From Gillisia hiemivivida (GTDB lineage Bacteria > Bacteroidota > Bacteroidia > Flavobacteriales > Flavobacteriaceae): a stretch of DNA of 64,000 nucleotides. The stretch spans positions 1 through 64,000 of the forward strand of contig NZ_VORY01000019.1 of the NCBI RefSeq assembly GCF_007997295.1, in the 5' to 3' direction. The notes under the pieces are model-generated. The model saw nothing but the letters and a program-made list of their open reading frames with translations, was not told the origin of the DNA and did no database searches. Shown piece by piece: positions 1-10,320 of this stretch (positions are counted from its first letter, which is position 1; the number at the start of each line of letters is the position of its first letter). The position numbers were made by a program, and so were the translations under genes.

Positions 1-620
1 ATCAAAATGATCCACTAAGAATTGTGGCAATACAAGCTTAATTAAATCTAGGTAGTTATCCAAACCTCTTTTTTTGGCAAATATCGAACTACATTTTCAA
101 TTCACACACAACTTTTGAGATTGATCCCTTTTTATTAACATTAGTATTGAATTAATTGCCAACCTACTACTGGCATTTTAATGATTACTATCAATTTAAG
201 CTAGCCAAGTTTATGAAGAACTAGTCAAAATGCTAGTAGTTTAATTCACAGCTAAATTAATTGCTCTGCTATTTTTCAATTATCATTTTATTTGCAAATA
301 TTATCCATGTGTTGTTAGAACTGCATTTTACATTGTCGGCCATATAGATGAAGGCTTTTGGAAATTATAAAGAAAACCCTGAGAAGAAATTTATTGATAG
401 TTTAATACCTTGAAAACATCAATAGAAAAGGGATCATTTGCTTACTAAGCGAATCATTGTGAAATAACTAAATAACCAACCTGTTTTTCAAATGCTTCAG
501 CCTAAAACTGAGGCATTCGATTTTTGATAATATTAGTAACTTGCGTTAAACCTTCTATAAAATGAATTGATGTTTAAGGGATTAAAGTAAATTTATCTTC
601 TAAATCAAAATTTATAATCT
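1..620. other. 620 bp without a recognisable gene
   Basis: AT-rich sequence with no open reading frame of credible length or composition on either strand. The only structure seen is an imperfect inverted repeat (167-179 against 227-239, one mismatch), too weak to call a terminator or element end. The last 60 bp probably hold the promoter of the small gene at 621. Confidence 0.5.
567..595 (+). promoter_or_regulatory. Candidate Bacteroidota promoter for the small gene at 621
   Basis: TTG at 567-569 and TAAATTTA at 588-595 are separated by 18 bases. This matches the flavobacterial -33 TTG / -7 TAnnTTTG layout with one mismatch in the last base. The start codon lies 25 bases further on. Confidence 0.4.
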
Positions 621-986
621 ATGACAACCTACTACAACAAGTTCGAAATTGAAGATGCTATGAAAGTAATTGTTGAAGATTATTTGAAAGATTGCATTGA
701 ATGTGAAGAATTACCTGAAGACTTTATAGATCTAATTAAGTATAATTTTCTAGCAAAGTATGTGTCTTTTAATAAGGAAGAGAAAGCAATAGAAATTGGG
801 GTGGAAGATACAACTGTAACCGATTCTCATTATCCAGTAATAGAGATTTTCTCTTTTCCAATTGAAAAATCGAATAAATGGTTAGATAATTCTTTTAAAT
901 ATGAAAATGATGATTTTGCTTTTTATGGAAAATTATTGAATAAAAGAAAATATAACCATAGTGATGTTGAAGTTGTGGTATTGTAA
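621..986 (+). CDS. Unrecognised small acidic protein (121 aa)
   Basis: I do not recognise this protein. It begins at an ATG with no in-frame alternative nearby. It is acidic, rich in Glu, Asp, Lys and Tyr, and has no signal peptide, membrane segment or cysteine cluster; a single CxxC-like CIEC occurs near residue 35. A short cytosolic alpha/beta domain is plausible but is only an inference from composition. It stands alone: the upstream 620 bp are empty, and a strong bidirectional terminator follows 21 bases after the stop. The next gene is convergent. A plausible promoter and a perfect terminator argue that it is a real monocistronic gene. Confidence 0.65.
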   Translation: MTTYYNKFEIEDAMKVIVEDYLKDCIECEELPEDFIDLIKYNFLAKYVSFNKEEKAIEIGVEDTTVTDSHYPVIEIFSFPIEKSNKWLDNSFKYENDDFAFYGKLLNKRKYNHSDVEVVVL

Positions 987-1006
987 ATAACAAAATAAAA
1001 ACAATT

Positions 1007-1046
1007 AAAAAAGAGAGAAACTTAAATTTGAGTTTCTCTCTTTTTT
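1007..1046. terminator. Bidirectional intrinsic terminator
   Basis: A perfect 16-bp stem (1007-1022 with 1031-1046) closes an 8-base loop and is flanked by A and T runs on the two sides. It separates the small plus-strand gene from the convergent ypdA-like gene and can serve both strands. Confidence 0.88.
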
Positions 1047-1110
1047 AATCCCTTATTGAGGGTTAAATTCCCCGTACTGATAGTTGTCGGGATTCATTGA
1101 AATTTTGAAG

Positions 1111-2136
1111 TTATTTCACTCCCGAACCATCGGAATATACCTCATTGCCCCGAGGTTCTTGATTTGTTTTCGCAATGTCGTCAAGGATCATTTTTGCATG
1201 AATTCTGGAATTCTCTATAAACCACTTATGAGTTTCCATTCCTCCACAAATTACTCCCGCCAGATAAATCCCGGGAATATTGGTTTCCATCGTGTTTTCA
1301 TTATAGGTTGGAATTCTTTTTTCGTCTGGAGAGAGGGATATCCCCATTGATTTTAAAAACTCAAAGTTTGGACGATATCCTGTGAGCAACACGACAAAAT
1401 CATTTTCTATTCTTATTTGTCCGTCTGGGGTATTAATAAGAACATCTTTTTCGGTAATTTCTTTTATTGCCGAAGAGAAATATGCCTTTACACTACCTTC
1501 TTCTACACGATTTATTATATCTGGTCTCACCCAATATTTTACTCGCTCCCCTATAGTTTTTTCTCGTACTACCATAGTAACATCTCCTCCTTTACGGTAG
1601 ATCTCCAAGGCGGCATCTACTGCAGAATTACTAGCACCCACTACAATGGTTTTTTGAGTTGCATAGTAATGAGGGTCGTTGTAATAATGACTCACTTTTG
1701 GGAGATCTTCTCCGAGAATATTTAAATAATTTGGAATGTCATAAAAGCCTGTGGCAACAATTATATTTTTGGATGTATAAGAAGCTTTTGTGGTTGTTAC
1801 TTTGTGAAGCTTATTTTCCAAGGTTTCTACAGAATTCACTTTTTCAAATAAATGAATATTCAATTCATTGGAAGTCGTGATCCTTCGATAGTATTCTAGA
1901 GCTTCAGCTTTATGCGGCTTTGGATTGGTGCTTATAAAAGGTATATTGTCTAATTCTAATTTTTCAGAAGTAGAAAAGAATGTCATATTAGTAGGGTAGT
2001 GATAAATGGAATTTACCAAGCATCCTTTTTCTAAAATAACATAGCTTAGTCCATGTTTTTTAGCTTCCAGTGCACAAGCAATTCCAATTGGACCTCCTCC
2101 AATGATAATTATGTCTAATGTTTTATGAATTTGCAA
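1111..2136 (-). CDS. ypdA: YpdA/Bdr-family flavin disulfide reductase
   Basis: A 341-residue two-dinucleotide-fold flavoprotein related to thioredoxin reductase. In Firmicutes YpdA (Bdr) reduces bacillithiol disulfide with NADPH. The FAD-binding GGGPIG lies at residues 13-18. The NADPH fold carries VVGASNSAVDAAL near residue 165, and a C-terminal ATG-like FAD contact (YLAGVICGG) is present. The classic CxxC of thioredoxin reductase is absent, as in YpdA. The cysteine used by staphylococcal YpdA in GGGPCG is Ile17 here; Cys21 is nearby. The start is a TTG that overlaps the rpe stop by 14 bases, with AAGGA just upstream, which points to translational coupling with rpe. The family call is firm; the substrate in this organism is unknown. 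Confidence 0.85.
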   Translation of the reverse strand: MQIHKTLDIIIIGGGPIGIACALEAKKHGLSYVILEKGCLVNSIYHYPTNMTFFSTSEKLELDNIPFISTNPKPHKAEALEYYRRITTSNELNIHLFEKVNSVETLENKLHKVTTTKASYTSKNIIVATGFYDIPNYLNILGEDLPKVSHYYNDPHYYATQKTIVVGASNSAVDAALEIYRKGGDVTMVVREKTIGERVKYWVRPDIINRVEEGSVKAYFSSAIKEITEKDVLINTPDGQIRIENDFVVLLTGYRPNFEFLKSMGISLSPDEKRIPTYNENTMETNIPGIYLAGVICGGMETHKWFIENSRIHAKMILDDIAKTNQEPRGNEVYSDGSGVK

Positions 2137-2785
2137 TTTCCTTAAGTCCTTTAATTGTTTCTATTTGGTTAGAAGCTTTAAACACATAGCTTCCAGCAAC
2201 CAGAACATCTGCTCCAGCTTTGGTAAGTTTTGCTGCATTTTTATCAGTCACTCCACCATCAACTTCAATAAGTGTTTTGGCACCGGCATTTTCAATGATC
2301 GTTTTTAATTGTTTCACTTTATTATAAGTGTTTTCAATAAAACTCTGACCACCAAATCCCGGGTTAACGCTCATTATAAGAACTAGGTCGATATCTTTAA
2401 TGGTATCTTTCAATAAATCTACATTAGTATGAGGATTTAGAGCAACACCCGCTTTCATTCCTTCAGCTTTAATAGCCTGAATTGTTCTATGAAGATGCGT
2501 GCATGCTTCATAATGTACCGTTAGGATATCAGATCCAAGCTCAGCAAATTCTTTGATGTATCTGTCAGGATCTACTATCATTAAGTGAACATCTATAGTT
2601 TTCTTTGCGTGTTTTGTGATAGCCTTTAAGATGGGCATCCCGTAAGAAATATTTGGAACAAAAACACCATCCATAATATCAATATGAAACCAGTCAGCTT
2701 CACTTTTATTGATCATTTCAAGGTCTCTTTGTAAATTTCCAAAGTCGGCTGCTAATACAGAAGGGGCAATTAATTTTGAGCTCAT
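2123..2785 (-). CDS. rpe: Ribulose-phosphate 3-epimerase
   Basis: Interconverts ribulose 5-phosphate and xylulose 5-phosphate in the pentose phosphate pathway, as a cytosolic TIM barrel. At 220 residues it is the usual length. The family signatures are all visible: APSVLAADF at the N-terminus, the metal-binding HIDIMDGVFVPN near residue 35, HLMI near 67, MSVNPGFGGQSF near 139, and EVDGGV near 175 with the second catalytic Asp neighbourhood. It has an ATG start. It overlaps the ypdA-like gene downstream by 14 bases, so the two are probably one transcript. A degenerate copy of the first 120 bp or so of this gene is found at 3525-3657. Confidence 0.97.
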   Translation of the reverse strand: MSSKLIAPSVLAADFGNLQRDLEMINKSEADWFHIDIMDGVFVPNISYGMPILKAITKHAKKTIDVHLMIVDPDRYIKEFAELGSDILTVHYEACTHLHRTIQAIKAEGMKAGVALNPHTNVDLLKDTIKDIDLVLIMSVNPGFGGQSFIENTYNKVKQLKTIIENAGAKTLIEVDGGVTDKNAAKLTKAGADVLVAGSYVFKASNQIETIKGLKEIANS

Positions 2786-2844
2786 AAGTATTGGTTGTCG
2801 TTATAGTGCGCACAAAAATAGCAAGAAAAATAGGTTCCCTCTTT

Positions 2845-3249
2845 CTAAATAGGTAAAAAAACCTTCAATATATTTTCTACTGCTATTTGAGCACTCTTCT
2901 CCAAAACCTTTGTCTGATTTAAATAATGTTGAAATTTCTCTTGGTCATAATCAGCAGAATCTAAAACAAAATCAGAAGCGTATCCATCATAGGCCTCTTT
3001 ATGAATATCTTTTCCAAATATCTGTATGATATCATGATGGCGCTTATCTTTTTTTATATCCTCAAATAGTTCAGAAATTTTCTTTTTTTCACCTTCTATA
3101 ATTTGAAAAAAATTACCCTCAGAAAAAAGCAAAAGACCGGTTACGTCATTTTCGTTATTCCAAGTTTTACTTGAATTCAAAATTCTTTCAATTTCTTTTT
3201 TCTCCAAGTCTTTAGAGGCTGTACTTACATAGACTATAGCGTATCTCAT
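2845..3249 (-). CDS. BLUF-domain blue-light sensor, copy 1
   Basis: A 134-residue stand-alone BLUF (FAD-binding blue-light sensor) protein with a short helical C-terminal cap and no output domain. By spacing to AppA and Slr1694, the flavin-pocket residues are Tyr7, Asn31 and Gln49, all present in YVS, WNN and FFQIIEG. The later strand that normally carries Trp and Met (WxM) reads YASDF at 90-94, so Tyr90 and Ser92 replace them. It is the paralogue of the protein encoded at 3690-4100, and the stretch between the two is a duplication scar. Output is presumably by protein-protein contact, since there is no effector domain. The promoter was not identified. Confidence 0.9.
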   Translation of the reverse strand: MRYAIVYVSTASKDLEKKEIERILNSSKTWNNENDVTGLLLFSEGNFFQIIEGEKKKISELFEDIKKDKRHHDIIQIFGKDIHKEAYDGYASDFVLDSADYDQEKFQHYLNQTKVLEKSAQIAVENILKVFLPI

Positions 3250-3340
3250 CTGTTTATTATTTAGTGAGAGTATAATTTAAGAAAAATAAAAGCGGTAGAT
3301 TGAGGTTTAGATATTAAAGAATTCTTAAAAAAATAACTCT

Positions 3341-3490
3341 CATTCAATACTCTGGGTTAATTCATCAATCAAAAACCGTTATTCTGATAGAGATATAGAT
3401 TATCCTGTTATCATCTCAATGGGAGATTATTCCAGTTAAGTTTTAAAATTTCACTTCTAGAAGTGTGTGCTTGAACCTTCTGTTTTCTGC
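3341..3490 (-). pseudogene. Relic of the rpoD 3' end and trailer
   Basis: Aligned by eye with 4231-4380. Shared stretches include TTCATCAATCAAAAA (3360-3374 against 4250-4264), a TATxCTGTTxTCATC segment, and CTTCTAGAAGT close to what would be the last rpoD codons. Substitutions and one-base indels break the reading frame, so this is a non-functional copy of the final sigma-factor codons plus untranslated trailer. Confidence 0.8.
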
Positions 3491-3524
3491 TAATACTTGA
3501 TGTCAGAAAAAATGAGAAGAACCA

Positions 3525-3657
3525 GCTTATCTATGCTATCCATGTGAAACCAAGAAACTTCAGTCTTATTTATCATTTCTCAATCTTGATGGAATTTGGC
3601 AAAATCGGCTTCTGGAACTGAAGGAATTAAAAATGTATTTTTCATAAGTATAGTTTG
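3525..3657 (-). pseudogene. Relic of the rpe 5' end
   Basis: Aligned by eye with 2672-2799. TGAAACCA, CTTATTTATCATTTC, AAATCGGCT, ACTGAAGG and TTCATAAGTAT correspond to the opening codons and start region of rpe, on the same strand and in the same order. Indels and substitutions destroy the frame. It lies directly 3' of the second BLUF gene, just as real rpe lies 3' of the first. Confidence 0.8.
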
Positions 3658-3675
3658 GAATTAATTTCCAAACTA
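3651..3675 (-). terminator. Hairpin just after the second BLUF gene
   Basis: A perfect 10-bp stem (3651-3660 with 3666-3675) and a 5-base loop start 14 bases past the stop at 3690. No U-run follows on the minus strand, so it may be a weak terminator or a 3'-end stabiliser. Confidence 0.4.
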
Positions 3676-3689
3676 AAACAGTATTATAA

Positions 3690-4100
3690 TTACTTGATAC
3701 CCTCGGCAAAATTGTTTAAAATATAACGCACAGAACTCTGAATTTTGGGATTCAGTTTTTCAATTTGAGATAAATACATTTCTATATTTTCAGACTGAAA
3801 GCGAGTATCTAAGGAAATGAAATCTGATTGATAGTCGTCAAATTTAGTTTCGGATCCTTCTTTTTCGAAAATCACCATAACATTAGTATGTCTTTTATCC
3901 TTAATGATCCGTGATAACAGAGATTTTAGAATTTCTTTTTCACCTTCGAGTACCTGGAAAAAATTTCCATCAGAATATAGAAGTATTCCGGTGATACCAT
4001 GCTCGTTGTTCCAGTTCCTCGTGTATTTAAGTACTTTCAGAATATCATCTTCAGTAAGATTGGAATTTACAGAACTTACATAGCTAATTGCATAACGCAT
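3690..4100 (-). CDS. BLUF-domain blue-light sensor, copy 2
   Basis: A 136-residue stand-alone BLUF protein, clearly paralogous to the one at 2845-3249. It keeps the flavin-pocket Tyr7, Asn31 and Gln49 at identical positions (YVS, WNN, FFQVLEG) and has the same substitution of the Trp/Met strand: YQSDF at residues 90-94. The C-terminal 40 residues form a predicted helical cap. It sits between rpoD and the duplication scar. Because rpoD is immediately upstream and has its own terminator, the gene is probably transcribed separately. It could tune gene expression or motility in response to blue light, but no partner is encoded nearby. Confidence 0.9.
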   Translation of the reverse strand: MRYAISYVSSVNSNLTEDDILKVLKYTRNWNNEHGITGILLYSDGNFFQVLEGEKEILKSLLSRIIKDKRHTNVMVIFEKEGSETKFDDYQSDFISLDTRFQSENIEMYLSQIEKLNPKIQSSVRYILNNFAEGIK

Positions 4101-4220
4101 AATTTGAGCATATAGGTTGGGAAAAGAAAATTAATAAAAAAAGCAATCTAATTAATTAAATACAACCTATTTGAAAGCTAAGCTTATAATTTATATAATA
4201 TTATTAGAAATCATAAAATG

Positions 4221-4248
4221 AAAAAACCCCGGTCATCACTCCGAGGTT
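4221..4248 (-). terminator. Intrinsic terminator of rpoD
   Basis: On the minus strand an 8-bp stem (AACCUCGG paired with CCGGGGUU, one G-U pair) and an 8-base loop are followed directly by UUUUUU. A second small hairpin (CCCGAT-AAGA-ATCGGG, 4277-4292) lies between the rpoD stop and this terminator. Confidence 0.85.
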
Positions 4249-4319
4249 ATTCATCAATCAAAAAACGAACAGTTATCCCGATAAGAATCGGGTATACTGT
4301 TGTCATCGTTATGGGAAAT

Positions 4320-5183
4320 TTATCCCAAGTATGTTTTTAAGATTTTGCTTCTAGAAGTATGTTTTAATCTTCTAATAGCTTTCTCTTTAATTTGTCTAAC
4401 TCTCTCACGAGTAAGATCAAATGTTTCTCCTATTTCTTCTAATGTCATTGGGTGTTGATCACCAAGACCAAAATACAATCTAATAACATCGGCCTCACGA
4501 GGAGTAAGCGTTTCTAAAGCGCGTTCTATTTCTGTTCTAAGAGATTCATGTAATAATTCTCTATCCGGATTAGGAGACTCCCCAGAACGTAAAACGTCAT
4601 ACAGGTTAGAGTCTTCACCTTCTACCAAAGGAGCGTCCATAGATACGTGACGGCCAGAATTTTTCATAGATTCCTTCACGTCATTAATAGTCATATCCAA
4701 TTCCTTTGCAATTTCTTCAGCACTTGGTGGGCGCTCATGAGATTGTTCAAGAAAAGCAAATGTTTTATTGATCTTGTTTATAGAACCAATTTTATTCAAT
4801 GGCAAACGTACAATACGAGATTGCTCTGCCAATGCTTGCAGGATAGATTGTCTAATCCACCATACTGCGTAGGATATAAATTTAAAACCACGAGTTTCAT
4901 CAAAACGTTTCGCAGCTTTAATTAATCCTAAATTTCCTTCGTTAATAAGATCGGGAAGAGTTAATCCCTGATTTTGATATTGCTTTGCTACCGAAACCAC
5001 AAAACGCAAGTTAGCTTTTGTTAATTTCTCTAGTGCACGGTCATCACCCGCTTTAATTTTTTGTGCTAATTCTACCTCTTCTTCAGCAGTAATTAAGTCT
5101 ACTTTACCAATTTCTTGCAAATACTTATCTAGCGAAGCGGTTTCTCTGTTAGTTACCTGCTTCGTAATTTTAAGTTGTCTCAT
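4320..5183 (-). CDS. rpoD: Primary RNA polymerase sigma factor (RpoD/SigA)
   Basis: Housekeeping sigma-70 factor of 287 residues, the short Bacteroidota form that lacks region 1.1 and the long non-conserved insert. Region 1.2 is at about 17-43. Region 2, with the -10-reading [11 protein letters not shown], is at 56-120. Region 3 is at about 130-210 and region 4 at 215-285, with the -35-contacting helix-turn-helix [19 protein letters not shown] at 247-265. In this phylum the factor reads TTTG / TAnnTTTG promoters, in keeping with the boxes seen here upstream of nqrA and trkA. The ATG is preceded by AGGGAGAAG, one of the few Shine-Dalgarno-like sites in the window. A relic of the gene's 3' end lies at 3341-3490. 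Confidence 0.97.
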
Positions 5184-5188
5184 CTATC

Positions 5189-5197
5189 TTCTCCCTG
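5189..5197 (-). promoter_or_regulatory. Shine-Dalgarno-like site of rpoD
   Basis: On the minus strand AGGGAGAAG places GGAG (5191-5194) seven bases before the rpoD ATG. This is noteworthy because most genes in this window have AT-rich leaders with no such site, as is usual in Bacteroidota. Confidence 0.55.
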
Positions 5198-5280
5198 GAT
5201 TTTTAATTGTGAATAGCTCTTGTATTAGTTTATACGTAAGAATTCATTAAAATGTTACAAAAGTCCTACTAATTCTTTTT

Positions 5281-5392
5281 GGGCGCTCCCCCTCAATCCA
5301 TAAAAAATGGATTTCGCGGTCGGGCTTTTCGCTCCAAGGCCTCACTCCCTTTGGTCGCTGCGGGCTTTTCGCTGCAATCCCTAACGCAAATA
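5281..5392. repeat. GC-richer REP-like intergenic repeat
   Basis: A patch visibly richer in G+C than its surroundings, between rpoD and the pnp terminator. It contains two direct copies of CGGGCTTTTCGCT (5321-5333 and 5361-5373), 40 bases apart, and a small hairpin TCCAT-AAAAA-ATGGA. No coding potential. It looks like one member of a dispersed intergenic repeat family; other copies cannot be tested within this window. Confidence 0.55.
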
Positions 5393-5413
5393 CATTTATT
5401 TAAAAATTTGCAC

Positions 5414-5447
5414 AAAAAAAGAGGCCGATTTTTCAATCGACCTCTTT
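5414..5447 (-). terminator. Intrinsic terminator of pnp
   Basis: A 13-bp stem (5418-5430 with 5435-5447, one G-U pair on the transcript) has a 4-base GAAA loop in the minus-strand RNA and is followed by a U-run of about seven. Confidence 0.9.
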
Positions 5448-5466
5448 AAACTAGTATTCAAACAGC

Positions 5467-7707
5467 TTAATCTCTATTTTCTCTAGGCTTGCGATCTCTA
5501 TCATCGCGTCCTCTGGAATCTCTAGATCCTCTGTTATCACGACCTCTGTCGTTATTTTCTCTTGGCTTAGGTGCAACATAACCTTCTGGCTTGTCCATCA
5601 GGGCCTTACGAGAAACTTTATCTTTACGCGTACGTTTGTCTAGGCCAAAGTATTTTACATCAAACTTATCACCCATGTTTACAACATCACTTACGTTTTC
5701 TGTACGTTCCCAAGCTAACTCAGATACGTGTAATAATACCTCGTTTCCTGGTGCATCCAAATATTCAACAACAGCACCAAAATCTAACATCTTGATTACT
5801 TTTACTTCATATACAGATCCCACTTCTGGCTTAAAGGTTATAGAATCAATCTTCGCTAAGACTTTATCGATTCCTTCTCGTCCTGTTCCCAAAATTTCAA
5901 CAATACCTTCTTCGGTTACTGGATCTTCGTTAATAACGATGGTACATCCAGTTTCTTTTTGAAGTTCTTGAATAACTTTTCCTCCTGGCCCAATTAATGC
6001 ACCAATAAATTCATTTTTAATACGAACGGAAACCATTTTTGGAGCATATTCTTTCACATCTTCTCTAGGCTTAGCGATAGTGTCAGTCAATTTCTCAAGA
6101 ATGTGTAAACGACCTTCTCTTGCTTGCTTTAATGCACTCACAAGAATCTCGTAACCTAATCCTTTAACTTTAATATCCATCTGGCAAGCGGTAATTCCAT
6201 CTGCCGTTCCAGTTACTTTAAAGTCCATATCTCCCAAGTGATCTTCATCACCAAGAATATCAGATAATACAGCATATTTTCCAGATTTAGCATCAGAAAT
6301 TAATCCCATTGCAATCCCAGAAACTGGTTTCTTCATCTGTATCCCTGCATCCATCATTGCCATTGTTCCAGCGCAAACAGTTGCCATAGAAGAAGAACCG
6401 TTGGATTCTAGAACTTCAGAAACTATACGTACTGTGTAAGGACAATCATCTGGTACCATTCCTTTTAATCCGCGTTGAGCCAAGTTACCGTGACCAACTT
6501 CTCTACGAGATGTTCCACGAATAGGTCGTGCTTCACCTGTACAGAAAGGAGGGAAGTTATAGTGAAGATAGAAACTCTCTTCTCCCTCATAAGATGGCAT
6601 ATCAATTTTATTTGCCTCTCTAGAAGTCCCTAAAGTTACTGTAGCCAACGCCTGAGTTTCTCCACGTGTGAAGATTGCAGATCCGTGAACAGAAGGTAAA
6701 TAATCAATCTCACACCAGATATCACGTACTTCGTCAGTCTTACGACCGTCTAAACGTAAGCCTTCGTTAAGTGTAAGGTCACGAACTGCAGCTTTTTCAG
6801 CTTTGCGATAGTAGTCAGAGACTAAGCCACCATATTCTTCTAATTCCTCTTCAGAGAATGATGCTTTTACTTCGTCTTTAATGTTAGCGAATGCGGTTGT
6901 ACGTTCTTGCTTAGAAGAACCAGCTTTTGCAACAGCATAGACTTTATCATAAGCCATGTCATGAACTTTCTTCGCTAAACTTTCATTTTCAACAGCGCGG
7001 TCATACTCACGTACTTCTTTTCTTCCGAATGCATCAGCTAAACGGTGTTGTGCCTCAATCTGAAGTTTTATAGCTTCATGGGCGAACTTAATGGCTTCTG
7101 TCATTTCCTCTTCAGAAATTTCGTCCATTTCACCTTCCACCATCATCACAGAATCAGCCGAAGCTCCAATCATCATATCAATGTCAGATTCTGCTAACTG
7201 TGCTCTAGTTGGGTTGATTACAAACTCACCATTTACACGTCCTACTCTTGCTTCAGAGATAGCACATTCAAAAGGGAAATCTGATAATTGGATTGCTGCA
7301 GAAGCGGCAAGACCTGCCATAGCATCTGGCATCACGTCTTCATCATGAGACATTAACTGAATCATTACTTGTGTTTCAGCGCTGTAATCTTTCGGGAATA
7401 ATGGACGTAGTACACGATCCACTAAACGCATTGTTAAAACTTCACCATCACTAGGGCGTGCTTCTCTTTTAAAGAAACCACCTGGGTAACGTCCTGCTGC
7501 TGCAAATTTTTCACGGTAATCTACCGTTAATGGTAAGAATGGCAAATCCTTTTGCTCGTAGTTAGAAACTACAGTGCAAAGCATCATACATTTTCCAGAC
7601 TGAACCACTACGGATCCGTGTGCCTGTTTTGCTAATTTTCCGGTTTCGATAGAAATTTCTCTACCATCCCCAAGATCGATAACCTCTTTAAAAACTTTTG
7701 GTATCAT
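5467..7707 (-). CDS. pnp: Polynucleotide phosphorylase
   Basis: A 3'-5' phosphorolytic exoribonuclease of the RNA-decay machinery, 746 residues from the chosen ATG. Two RNase PH cores come first, about 10-230 and 320-555, the second with the metal-binding GDMDFKV. A KH domain (IGPGGK) follows at about 566-620 and an S1 domain at about 629-700. The C-terminal 30 residues are a disordered tail rich in Arg, Asp and Gly. The frame is open for 26 codons upstream, but the family N-terminus [16 protein letters not shown] begins at 7707 and the upstream codons hold a palindromic leader, so 7707 is preferred. rpsO lies upstream, as in many bacteria, but a terminator separates the two. Confidence 0.96.
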
Positions 7708-7727
7708 ATTGTTTTTTTTCAATTCCA

Positions 7728-7745
7728 ATTTGCATGAATGCAAAT
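7728..7745. promoter_or_regulatory. Palindrome in the pnp leader
   Basis: ATTTGCAT-GA-ATGCAAAT is an 8-bp perfect inverted repeat 20 bases upstream of the pnp start. It is a candidate leader hairpin or protein-binding site. Upstream of it the leader transcript is a CA-rich unstructured run (7788-7811). Confidence 0.35.
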
Positions 7746-7898
7746 CGTGTGTTATACAATGGTCTTCGTCTTTCTGGACGAACAAGTTGTGTTGTTGTGT
7801 GGTTGTTGTGTGACCAATGAAAAACTACTCTTCGACTTTGCTAAGAGTAAAATTTTAAAATAATTCTAAAGACAGTGAGAAGTTATGTTAATACGAAT

Positions 7899-7925
7899 AA
7901 AAAAAAGGGAGCATAAAGCTCCCTT
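7899..7925 (-). terminator. Intrinsic terminator of rpsO
   Basis: An 8-bp stem (7905-7912 with 7918-7925) and a 5-base loop are followed on the minus strand by eight U residues, directly after the rpsO stop. Confidence 0.88.
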
Positions 7926-7930
7926 GAAAA

Positions 7931-8200
7931 TTATTTTCTTAATCCTAATTCTTTTACGATAGCACGGTATCTTAAGATATCTTTCTTCATTAAATAATCA
8001 AGTAGATTTCTTCTTTTCCCTACCAATCTTACAAGAGATCGCTCAGTATTATAATCTTTACGATTTGTTTTTAAATGTCCAGAAAGGTGTGAAATACGTT
8101 GTGTGAATAATGCGATTTGACCTTCTGCGGATCCAGTGTTTTTGGCACTATTTCCATGCTTTTTAAAAAGCTCTTGCTTTTCTTCCTTAGTTAAATACAT
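7931..8200 (-). CDS. rpsO: 30S ribosomal protein S15
   Basis: Small-subunit protein that binds the central domain of 16S rRNA. At 89 residues it has the standard length. The family core GSAEGQIALFTQRISHLSGH lies at residues 22-41, followed by the basic LVRLVGKRRNLLDYL helix and the closing RYRAIVKELGLRK. ATG start at 8200. It has its own -7 box upstream and its own terminator, and pnp follows on the same strand. A short stem in its leader (GACAG-TATTT-CTGTC, 8233-8247) might take part in S15 autoregulation, which is known in other bacteria, but that is only an inference. Confidence 0.97.
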   Translation of the reverse strand: MYLTKEEKQELFKKHGNSAKNTGSAEGQIALFTQRISHLSGHLKTNRKDYNTERSLVRLVGKRRNLLDYLMKKDILRYRAIVKELGLRK

Positions 8201-8253
8201 TCCAATATTAATTTTAATGATTTTTATGTACAGACAGTATTTCTGTCAAGCCG

Positions 8254-8261
8254 CAAATATA
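8254..8261 (-). promoter_or_regulatory. -7 promoter box of rpsO
   Basis: The minus strand reads TATATTTG, a perfect TAnnTTTG, 53 bases upstream of the rpsO ATG. No TTG at the expected -33 spacing was found. Confidence 0.5.
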
Positions 8262-8336
8262 CTATATTTTTATTAAAAGTTATAGAAGTGAAATCATTTA
8301 TTAATCAAGCAATTGGAATTACTAAAACATCCTAAT

Positions 8337-9194
8337 TTAACTTCTAACTGGCTGATTTAAAATTAAGTCCAAATATAAATTCACTCTATCTTTTAATTCA
8401 GATCTTGGGGTAATGAAGTCCAAAAACCCATGATCTTTTAGATACTCTGCAGTCTGAAAATCCTTTGGTAGATCTTGCCCTGTGGTATCTTTTACAATTC
8501 TTGGTCCTGCAAATCCAATAAGCGCTCCGGGTTCAGAAATATTAATATCTCCTAACATTGCGAAAGAGGCTGTAGTTCCTCCTGTAGTTGGATCTGTACA
8601 TAAAGAAATATAAGGAATATTAGCATCTGCCAATTGAGCTAATTTCACAGATGTTTTTGCCATTTGCATTAAAGATAAAGCAGCTTCCATCATTCTTGCA
8701 CCTCCAGATTTCGAGATGATCATGAATGGAATATTATTTATTAAGGCGTGATTTGCTGCTCGGGCAATTTTTTCACCTACTACAGAACCCATAGATCCCC
8801 CTATAAAACTAAAGTCCATACAGGCAACTACTAGTTCATTACCTTTAGACTTTCCAACTGCGGTTCTTACAGCATCTGTAAGTCCAGTTTTTTCTTGCGC
8901 AGCTTTTAATCTCTCGGTATATTTTTTAGTGTCCGTAAATTTTAATGGATCTTTAGATTCTATATTTTTATCAAGCTCTTTGAATTTGTTGTCGTCAAAA
9001 AGAATTTTGAAATATTCTTTGCTTCCAATTCTAACATGATATCCATCTTCTGGGCTTACATAGAAATTTTTCTCTAATTGGTCCGCATCTACTATCTTCC
9101 CTGTAGGTGATTTATACCATAAACCTTTTGGTACATCTTTCTTGTCTTCAGTGGCAGTTTGAATTCCTTTTTGTGTTCTTTTAAACCAAGCCAT
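8337..9194 (-). CDS. accD: Acetyl-CoA carboxylase carboxyltransferase beta subunit
   Basis: Transfers the carboxyl group from carboxybiotin to acetyl-CoA to give malonyl-CoA, the first committed step of fatty acid synthesis. It is 285 residues of the crotonase-like carboxyltransferase fold; [18 protein letters not shown] and SGGARMMEA are clear. The N-terminal C4 zinc ribbon of the E. coli protein has lost every cysteine: the four positions are Ser29, Gly32, Ser47 and Asp50 (KSPTGK and VSPEDG). The gene follows fbaA by 58 bases, with a strong hairpin in the gap and only 18 bases between hairpin and ATG, so it probably depends on read-through from fbaA or on a promoter inside it. Confidence 0.95.
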
Positions 9195-9212
9195 AATTTA
9201 TGTTCTAATTAA

Positions 9213-9245
9213 AAAACTGAAATAATTATTAATTATTTCAGTTTT
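9213..9245 (-). terminator. Strong hairpin between fbaA and accD
   Basis: A perfect 15-bp stem (9213-9227 with 9231-9245) with a 3-base loop is followed by UUUUUUAAUUAG on the minus strand. It begins 7 bases after the fbaA stop and ends 18 bases before the accD start, so it is either a leaky terminator or an attenuator. Confidence 0.85.
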
Positions 9246-9252
9246 CGTTTTA

Positions 9253-10320
9253 TTAAAGTGTATTTACGTTATTAAGGTCTTCAAATGCTTGTTTAAGTCT
9301 ATTCTTAAAAGTGACTTCTCCGGAACGTAACCAAACTCTTGGGTCGTAATATTTCTTATTAGGCACTTCTGCTCCGTCAGGATTTCCGATTTGGGCTTTC
9401 AAATATTCTTTTTTGTCTCCCATATAATCACGAATTCCTTCAGCATACGCATATTGAAGATCGGTGTCAATATTCATTTTTATAACTCCATAACCAATAG
9501 CTTCTCTAATTTCTTCTACGGAAGATCCACTTCCACCGTGAAAAACAAAATCTATATGATTATCTCCTAATCCATGCTTCTTACTTAGATATTCTTGAGA
9601 ATTCTTAAGAATTTTTGGAGTTAGTTTTACATTCCCTGGTTTGTAAACTCCATGCACATTTCCAAAGGCTGCAGCAATAGTAAATTGATCACTCACTTTG
9701 CTCAGCTCTTCAAAAGCATAAGCTACTTCTTCGGGTTGTGTGTATAATTTAGAATCATCTACATCGGTGTTGTCCACTCCATCTTCTTCACCTCCTGTGA
9801 TCCCTAATTCAATTTCAAGGGTCATTCCCATCTTACTCATTCTCTCTAAGTACGTTTTGCAGATCTCGATGTTCTCTTCTAAAGATTCTTCAGAAAGATC
9901 AATCATATGAGAACTGTACAATGGTTTTCCATGCTCCTTGAAAAATTTCTCTCCTGCATCCAAAAGTCCATCTATCCAAGGCAATAATTTTTTAGCGCAA
10001 TGATCTGTATGTAAGATCACGGTTGCTCCATAGGCCTTTGCAAGCTCGTGGATGTGTAAAGCTCCTGCAACCCCACCAGCAATAGCTGCTTTTTGATTTT
10101 CATTAGAAAGTCCTTTCCCTGCATTAAACTGTGAACCTCCATTTGAGAACTGAATAATAACCGGAGAGTTTAGATCTGCTGCAGTTTCCATAACGGCATT
10201 TATGGTGCTAGAACCAACCACATTTACTGCGGGAAGAGCAAATCCTTTTTCTTTTGCATACTTAAAAATTTCCTGCACTTCCTTTCCAGTAGCAACCCCT
10301 GGTTTTATATTATGACTCAT
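9253..10320 (-). CDS. fbaA: Class II fructose-bisphosphate aldolase
   Basis: Zinc-dependent aldolase that splits fructose 1,6-bisphosphate into dihydroxyacetone phosphate and glyceraldehyde 3-phosphate in glycolysis and gluconeogenesis. It is 355 residues, the long class IIA type. The zinc and substrate motifs are present: LHTDHCAKK near 105-113, GGEEDGVDN near 180, a His in AAFGNVHGVYKPGN near 225, VFHGGSGSS near 260 and the NIDTDLQYAY phosphate loop near 285. ATG start. A TATTTTTG box lies 25 bases upstream, in the 48-base gap to tamL, and suggests its own promoter. The accD gene follows after a hairpin. Confidence 0.97.
   Translation of the reverse strand: MSHNIKPGVATGKEVQEIFKYAKEKGFALPAVNVVGSSTINAVMETAADLNSPVIIQFSNGGSQFNAGKGLSNENQKAAIAGGVAGALHIHELAKAYGATVILHTDHCAKKLLPWIDGLLDAGEKFFKEHGKPLYSSHMIDLSEESLEENIEICKTYLERMSKMGMTLEIELGITGGEEDGVDNTDVDDSKLYTQPEEVAYAFEELSKVSDQFTIAAAFGNVHGVYKPGNVKLTPKILKNSQEYLSKKHGLGDNHIDFVFHGGSGSSVEEIREAIGYGVIKMNIDTDLQYAYAEGIRDYMGDKKEYLKAQIGNPDGAEVPNKKYYDPRVWLRSGEVTFKNRLKQAFEDLNNVNTL

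What the first reader, a model, noticed from the sequence alone, without database searches (positions are those of the whole stretch)
2672..4380. Fossil tandem duplication: rpe end, BLUF gene and rpoD end duplicated, with both partner fragments decaying
The gap between the two BLUF genes is not random. 3341-3490 aligns with the rpoD 3' end and trailer (4231-4380), and 3525-3657 aligns with the rpe 5' end (2672-2799), both in the original orientation. This is what a tandem duplication of [rpe 5' end - BLUF - rpoD 3' end] leaves behind: the junction fragments rot while both BLUF copies stay open. Selection has therefore kept two sensors.
Basis: seen in the sequence. Interest (0 to 1): 0.75.

Follow-up and report, generated by a model that had tools for sequence, protein, structure and literature searches.

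The report
Two light-sensor alleles stacked in tandem
Between two housekeeping genes of a flavobacterium sit two blue-light sensor genes that look like a simple duplication, but the decayed scar between them resembles another lineage's copy of the neighbouring gene, so recombination between relatives seems to have stacked two rival versions of the locus end to end.

Summary
The gap between the two BLUF genes is made of two relics whose alignment ends meet: rpe leader and 5' end (window 3505-3688) and rpoD 3' end, trailer and BLUF upstream region (3252-3504), in original order and orientation, far above shuffles. BLUF1 and BLUF2 are about 40% identical, belong to different clades, and each occurs alone at the same place in congeners; sisterhood is rejected (p-AU 1.1e-5). 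The rpe relic resembles rpe of G002/G014/G015 (67-71%), not the genome's own (62%); simulated decay of own-type rpe never reproduces this (0 of 1000 in each of three settings), though a GTR+G4 tree could not decide. G006 keeps the same order with a more decayed scar; G001 stacks three haplotypes with two scars, one young. Best reading: alternative rpoD-BLUF-rpe haplotypes were joined in tandem by recombination with a relative's DNA, one end by homology, the other illegitimately. The kind of event is known, this serial use of the locus appears new; the mechanism is inferred.

The parts
2123..2785 (-). rpe, ribulose-phosphate 3-epimerase (intact, own 'A-type' allele)
   Evidence: ORF; Pfam PF00834 6e-78; groups with G006/G008/G012, then G005
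2845..3249 (-). BLUF1, short BLUF photoreceptor, 134 aa
   Evidence: Pfam PF04940 2.2e-26; clade with genes of G008, G012, G014, G015, G006 and the second BLUF of G001
3252..3504 (-). rpoD' relic: about the last 20 codons of rpoD, its trailer with decayed terminators, and the BLUF upstream region
   Evidence: score 88 with G004, 82 with own; source lineage not resolved
3504..3505 (.). probable illegitimate junction: alignment ends of rpoD' and rpe' meet here
3505..3688 (-). rpe' relic: BLUF2-rpe leader and about the first 50 codons of rpe, stop at codon 22, B-type (G002/G014/G015-like)
3690..4100 (-). BLUF2, short BLUF photoreceptor, 136 aa
   Evidence: Pfam PF04940 3.5e-25; clade with genes of G002, G006, G010, the third BLUF of G001, Salinimicrobium and Salegentibacter
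4200..4319 (-). rpoD trailer (two hairpins around a strongly conserved 23-mer) and start of the BLUF2 upstream region; the part duplicated in the relic
   Evidence: BLUF2 upstream matches that of G002 (z 8.8)
4320..5183 (-). rpoD, primary sigma factor (intact)
   Evidence: ORF; Sigma-70 regions

Best explanation
The locus holds two alternative haplotypes of the rpoD-BLUF-rpe interval joined in tandem. One haplotype (rpoD-BLUF2-rpe of the type now found alone in G002) was fused, at a point inside its rpe 5' end, to the rpoD 3' end of the other haplotype (rpoD'-BLUF1-rpe of the type found in G008/G012 and, with another rpe allele, in G014/G015). Both intact housekeeping genes survive at the outer ends; the inner rpe 5' end and rpoD 3' end are functionless stubs that decay. 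Shown: order, position of the joint, class of each BLUF, non-own type of the rpe stub, the same order with an rpoD stub in G006, and two further joints in G001. Inferred: that the joint arose when DNA of a relative was taken up and recombined by homology in one housekeeping gene and by an illegitimate joint (or by circularisation and single crossover) at the other end; which haplotype was resident cannot be told. The stack could also collapse back to one allele by recombination between the direct repeats, which may explain the patchwork of single alleles (inference). Both products should be flavin-binding blue-light sensors acting through partner proteins (inference from the family); their partners are unknown.
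For: Relics above every shuffle, alignment ends meeting. BLUF1/BLUF2 in two supported clades (98/95 and 99/93), each found singly at the same site in relatives; sisterhood rejected, p-AU 1.1e-5. rpe relic: 71, 70, 67% to G002, G015, G014 versus 62% to own rpe and at most 64% to any other rpe compared; of 7 fixed diagnostic sites 6 are B type, 0 A type, 1 neither (binomial p 0.031); placement on own rpe rejected under JC, K2P, HKY (p-AU 0.00096, 1.5e-6, 0.00078); decay simulations 0 of 1000 from A-type at each of three settings, 941-959 of 1000 from B-type. BLUF2 upstream matches G002's (z 8.8), and G006's BLUF2 upstream matches G002's too (z 11.7). Where held, seven flanking genes put G000 nearest to G006/G004/G014/G002/G015/G012 (identities; trees of six joined genes and of FADox), while Rpe splits these. 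G006 gap holds the rpoD' relic (95 versus shuffle maximum 49.5 of 500, against G015). G001: two rpe stubs and an rpoD stub between three BLUF genes (rpe5 z 28.5, rpoD3 z 18.5); its young stub is an 88-column repeat of own rpe with 4 differing columns and a different leader.
Against: A GTR+G4 tree gives the relic a branch of length 10 and does not decide its place: clade with G002/14/15 p-AU 0.483, with G000/6/8/12 p-AU 0.546, with G000 alone 0.305. In one search the placement on the stem of the A-type clade was not among the rows printed; only the placement on G000 itself was. Pairwise versions of the diagnostic test run from p 0.013 to 0.17. The rpoD' relic shows no clear source (G004 71.6%, own 68.8%, G002 67.6%). 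In G001 the regions upstream of the second and third BLUF match no relative clearly (best z 1.8 and 2.9). Protein trees put G006 BLUF2 nearer G002 and G006 BLUF1 nearer G015 than G000's, though G000+G006 as sisters is not rejected (p-AU 0.235 and 0.18), so one shared event or two is open. The rpe stub of G006 is hardly detectable (6 of 500 shuffles reach it). The conflict of Rpe with the species tree is only weakly significant alone (p-AU 0.042). No transfer was observed; one genome per species only.
Confidence: 0.82

Rival explanations
1. One reading: a simple in-lineage tandem duplication of [rpe 5' - BLUF - rpoD 3'], followed by divergence of both BLUF copies and decay of the junction.
For: The topology fits exactly.
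Against: BLUF copies are not sisters and each has single-copy orthologs at the site; the rpe stub is of another allele type.
Confidence: 0.05
2. Two steps: an ordinary tandem duplication first, then replacement of one BLUF and its rpe stub by a relative's DNA through homologous recombination (gene conversion). It overlaps with the best explanation in its end product.
For: Both steps are common in bacteria (general knowledge); the fixed diagnostic sites lie only in the first 64 bases of the stub, so the part next to the junction could be of own type.
Against: Needs two events where one suffices; the alignment to G002 runs to the junction. In G001 three BLUF classes are stacked with three different rpe leaders, which would need the double step repeatedly.
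Confidence: 0.12
3. An ancient BLUF1-BLUF2 array was present in the genus ancestor; most species lost one copy, and scars are leftovers of that old duplication.
For: Both clades are old; the BLUF2 clade includes Salegentibacter and Salinimicrobium.
Against: An old unselected stub should be hard to recognise when dS between most BLUF orthologs compared already exceeds 1; the second G001 stub is young; the stub in G000 falls inside a living rpe clade under equal-rate models; the joints of G000 and G001 differ.
Confidence: 0.08
4. The relics are kept for a function (for example a duplicated terminator or regulatory RNA) and are not just rotting.
For: The relic keeps the piece TTTTTGATTGATGAA of the conserved rpoD-trailer motif.
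Against: The scan finds a terminator-like stem in the real trailer but none in the relic; the G006 relic has lost that piece in part.
Confidence: 0.04

Closest known systems
Serial displacement arrays of T6SS effector-immunity modules in Vibrio cholerae (PMC5361080; passages read)
   Same: Diverged alleles from other strains accumulate in tandem at one site; left-over ends of displaced genes mark the joints; the authors propose a mechanism akin to homology-facilitated illegitimate recombination.
   Different: There a toxin gene is displaced and immunity genes pile up; here a complete sensor gene is added between two housekeeping genes that both stay intact, and the stubs are of the housekeeping genes.
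Homology-facilitated illegitimate recombination, and circularisation plus single crossover (PMC3240628; abstract and outline read)
   Same: One end integrates by homology, the other by an illegitimate joint; or a linear fragment is ligated to a circle and integrates by one crossover. Both would give the observed joint.
   Different: Laboratory events; here an inferred natural event between diverged species.
Merodiploids made by natural transformation in Streptococcus pneumoniae (PMC3784515; abstract and outline read)
   Same: Uptake of DNA creates tandem duplications that keep both alleles of an essential gene.
   Different: Those are about 100-900 kb and rest on repeats; here the unit is about 0.9 kb by my estimate from the alignments.
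Multiple BLUF paralogs in Acinetobacter (PMC3554667; passages read)
   Same: Several BLUF genes per genome with patchy distribution, explained by duplications, losses and possible transfer among species.
   Different: No joint or scar is described in the passages read; here the joint itself points to the origin.

Membership tests
BLUF photoreceptors (PF04940) | Match to the domain over the curated cut-off | tested here: met
   92.2 and 88.4 bits, cut-off 25; solved relatives include photoactivated adenylyl cyclases, Slr1694, AppA
BLUF photoreceptors (PF04940) | Conserved Tyr, Asn, Gln of the flavin pocket (roles recalled) | tested here: met
   Y7, N31, Q49 invariant in the 6 rows aligned, one of them the truncated copy; that these are the pocket residues is recalled
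BLUF photoreceptors (PF04940) | Flavin binding and light-induced red shift | not testable with these tools
   needs protein
Haplotype stacking by homology-facilitated illegitimate recombination | Tandem alleles derive from different lineages | tested here: met
Haplotype stacking by homology-facilitated illegitimate recombination | Truncated ends of the flanking genes meet at an illegitimate joint | tested here: met
   near 3504/3505; two further joints in G001 (read by eye)
Haplotype stacking by homology-facilitated illegitimate recombination | A homologous crossover point at the other end | tested here: inconclusive
   not visible in G000; in G001 the repeat begins inside rpe after a diverged leader
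In-lineage tandem duplication | The two copies are each other's closest relatives | tested here: not met
   p-AU 1.1e-5 against
In-lineage tandem duplication | Junction fragments are copies of the genome's own flanking genes | tested here: not met
   rpe stub of another type (GTR+G4 undecided); rpoD stub undecided

The most novel reading that the evidence does not exclude
In the Gillisia group the rpoD-rpe interval works as an integrase-free cassette site: light-sensor alleles from relatives are stacked there again and again by recombination anchored in two housekeeping genes, and stacks later collapse to one allele through the direct repeats, so that the stack is the visible intermediate of allele switching. 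At least three joints are seen (one in G000/G006, two in G001, where three haplotype classes sit in a row).
Probability: 0.4. Interest if true: 0.65.

Novelty: new variant of a known kind. Interest (0 to 1): 0.5.

Why it matters
A gene pair that annotation would call tandem paralogs is shown by its scar to be, most likely, two alleles from different lineages put side by side. Such scars let one tell duplication from stacking and read the breakpoints. The locus offers a graded series (young scar in G001, older in G000, almost erased in G006) for studying how allele exchange between species leaves extra genes behind, and it suggests that strains differ in their set of blue-light sensors by recombination rather than by slow divergence alone.

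Tried and rejected
Rejected: simple tandem duplication. Relic placement with GTR+G4 was uninformative, in my view because the stub breaks conserved sites (length-10 branch); diagnostic sites, equal-rate models and simulations were used after seeing that result. rpoD' source: not resolved. dN/dS between the two copies: dS saturated; YN00 failed in all 11 BLUF pairs and in 3 of 6 rpe pairs. Scar search in 91 rpoD-rpe intervals (77 named, from the 80 best Rpe matches, and 14 of the genus; L039 and G015 are the same contig, counted twice): 64 long enough to test, 27 too short, 25 rows printed. Clear signals: G001, L091, G000, L079, G006. L079 is a false positive (short tandem repeats) and L091 a repeat of the rpoD trailer without recognisable rpe or BLUF remains. 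L035, L113, L088, L036 and L099 exceed the best of only 60 shuffles slightly (z 2.7-4.5) and were not followed up. Of the other tandem BLUF intervals, L078 gave no signal (z at most 1.8), L099 the weak one just named, and L054 and L058 are not among the printed rows. Rfam: nothing above gathering in 1-10000 but the S15 leader; Yfr8 at E 0.011 in 3250-4400 is below its gathering score and taken as chance. Literature: of the papers listed (no hit), no title or abstract start describes BLUF stacking at rpoD-rpe; PMC4603819, which holds both Gillisia and BLUF, was not opened, and the library lacks most subscription journals. For the side finding, the second motif variant (24 loci) proved to lie inside long open frames and was dropped.
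Full report
What is there. On the minus strand the window reads rpoD (4320-5183), BLUF2 (3690-4100), a 440-base gap, BLUF1 (2845-3249), rpe (2123-2785). The genome (G000) belongs to the genus of G015; G015's contig has the same length and gene positions as a record titled Gillisia sp. LH_M83, so I call it the Gillisia group (16 genomes held).

The observation. The gap aligns with the rpoD 3' end and trailer (score 63, best of 1000 shuffles 24) and with the rpe 5' end (48, best of 1000 shuffles 22). Against the best-matching relatives the two relics fill nearly the whole gap: leader plus about the first 50 codons of rpe at 3505-3688 and rpoD end, trailer and BLUF upstream at 3252-3504.

It is not a plain duplication: the BLUF genes. 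Among 14 genomes of the group with a complete rpoD-rpe interval, 9 carry one BLUF (G002, G003, G005, G008, G009, G012, G013, G014, G015), 4 carry two (G000, G006, G007, G010) and G001 carries three, one broken. BLUF1 orthologs stand alone in G008, G012, G014, G015; a BLUF2 ortholog stands alone in G002. The tree of 39 proteins of at least 125 residues puts BLUF1 and BLUF2 in different clades (98/95 and 99/93; the BLUF2 clade also holds Salinimicrobium and Salegentibacter genes). Holding G000's two genes together costs 145 log units, p-AU 1.1e-5 (17 rows).

It is not a plain duplication: the scar. The rpe stub is 71, 70 and 67% identical to rpe of G002, G015 and G014 but 62% to the genome's own rpe, over 135 positions; no other of the 22 rpe genes compared exceeds 64%. 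At the 7 sites where G000/G006/G008/G012 differ uniformly from G002/G014/G015 the stub has the second type 6 times, the first never (binomial p 0.031; pairwise versions p 0.013-0.17). Under JC, K2P and HKY the best placements are in the G002/G014/G015 clade and placement on own rpe is rejected (p-AU at most 0.001; the stem of the own-type clade was not printed). Against this, GTR+G4 gave no decision. Decaying copies of own-type rpe reached the observed excess in 0 of 1000 runs at each of three base compositions; copies of the other type did in 941-959 of 1000. The region upstream of BLUF2 also matches that of G002 (z 8.8). The rpoD stub could not be assigned.

Gene trees around the locus. Identities of seven flanking genes, where held (not every gene is held for every genome), put G000 nearest to G006, G004, G014, G002, G015, G012; a tree of six joined genes (14 genomes) and one of FADox (15) agree. 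Only rpe puts G000/G006/G008/G012 (with G005) apart from G002/G014/G015 (the conflict test alone p-AU 0.042). Two rpe alleles and at least two BLUF alleles are thus scattered over the species tree, as expected if haplotypes of this interval are exchanged.

Other stacks. G006, sister of G000, has the same order; its gap holds the rpoD relic (95 against shuffle maximum 49.5 of 500 with the G015 sequence) while the rpe stub is nearly gone (6 of 500 shuffles reach it). G001 has rpoD, two oxidoreductase genes, a broken BLUF, an rpe stub joined to an rpoD stub, a BLUF1-class gene, a second rpe stub, a BLUF2-class gene and rpe. The second stub and the true rpe share an 88-column repeat with 4 differing columns, while their leaders differ. 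The leader of stub 2 is most like those of G000, G006, G005, G015, G012 and G008 (z 5.0-6.9; all BLUF1-class but G005), that of stub 1 most like G003 (z 7.3), whose interval has the same two oxidoreductase genes, and that of the true rpe most like G011 and G007 (4.8, 4.4), then G002 (2.9). So the three units carry three different leaders; their upstream regions match no relative clearly (z at most 2.9 for the two tested). The oxidoreductase families (NAD-binding NmrA-like; FAD oxidase-like) were checked on the G010 copy only. G007 and G010 have two BLUF genes without detectable scar, so other routes exist as well.

How it most likely arose. A fragment of a relative's rpoD-BLUF-rpe interval entered; one side recombined by homology, the other was joined illegitimately inside the dispensable part of the resident copy, or the fragment was ligated into a circle and integrated by one crossover. 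Both routes are described for laboratory bacteria (PMC3240628, abstract and outline read) and a similar series is proposed for V. cholerae immunity arrays (PMC5361080, passages read). If rpoD and rpe must stay whole, only joints that leave them outside survive, which would explain why the scars hold rpe 5' and rpoD 3' ends. This paragraph is inference.

Function. Both proteins keep the Tyr, Asn and Gln of the flavin pocket (roles recalled). BLUF1 and BLUF2 each show purifying selection among orthologs (rough because most dS exceed 1), so both were functional in most of their history; whether G000 needs both is open. A third BLUF in G000 (contig C15) has an in-frame TAA.

Novelty and score. The kind of event is known; a scarred, serial stack of photoreceptor alleles between two housekeeping genes did not appear in the listings of the searches made. 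New variant of a known kind, interest 0.5.

Side finding. The rpoD trailer contains a 23-mer between two hairpins, identical in 59 of 77 named Flavobacteriaceae loci and present with up to 2 mismatches somewhere in 181 of 249 family genomes, the reversed control giving none in the rows printed. One variant occurs 14 times in 13 of 199 genomes; 13 of these 14 lie, on the opposite strand, 1 base (11) or 15 bases (2) before the ATG of an ORF of at least 140 aa. Of 8 such proteins scanned, 2 are DUF2807 and 3 MacB-like; 3 have no family over its cut-off. It may be a 3'-end small RNA with antisense targets, but RNAalifold also folds part of the 23-mer on itself and no RNA data were seen.

Noticed in passing
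window 4225-4310 (minus strand), rpoD trailer: Noncoding 23-mer ACTGTTCGTTTTTTGATTGATGA between two hairpins; the second hairpin covaries (5 of 16 predicted pairs, all in it, show changes on both sides in the 34 sequences given, of 64 named ones available plus the window). Identical in 59 of 77 named rpoD loci. A variant is complementary to the leader just before the ATG in 13 of 14 copies (DUF2807 and MacB-like among them): candidate conserved rpoD 3'-end small RNA with envelope-gene targets. No Rfam family reaches its cut-off there.
   Followed up: partly
L115 (G001:C2:1083000-1089600): Three BLUF genes (first one broken) with two rpe stubs and one rpoD stub: three haplotypes of the interval in a row.
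   Followed up: yes
L117, L120, L123, L127, L115 (G003, G007, G010, G013, G001): One BLUF class is preceded by an NmrA-like NAD-binding gene and an FAD oxidase-like gene, suggesting a linked module (seen by eye; families checked on G010 only).
   Followed up: partly
L003 (G000:C15:5617-5874): Third BLUF gene of the window's genome with one in-frame TAA, upstream of what looks by eye like a histidine-kinase ORF.
   Followed up: no
L091, 2775-2986 (Flavobacteriaceae bacterium RhTr2): A second, partly near-identical copy of the rpoD trailer between rpoD and a BLUF gene, perhaps another stack whose first cargo is lost.
   Followed up: partly
L054, L058, L078, L099: Two or three BLUF genes between rpoD and rpe also in Aquimarina and a Flavobacteriaceae MAG; BLUF-like hits occur in 23 of 76 named linked rpoD-rpe intervals.
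   Followed up: partly
window 8198-8261 (minus strand): S15-Flavobacteria ribosomal leader before rpsO; ordinary.
   Followed up: no
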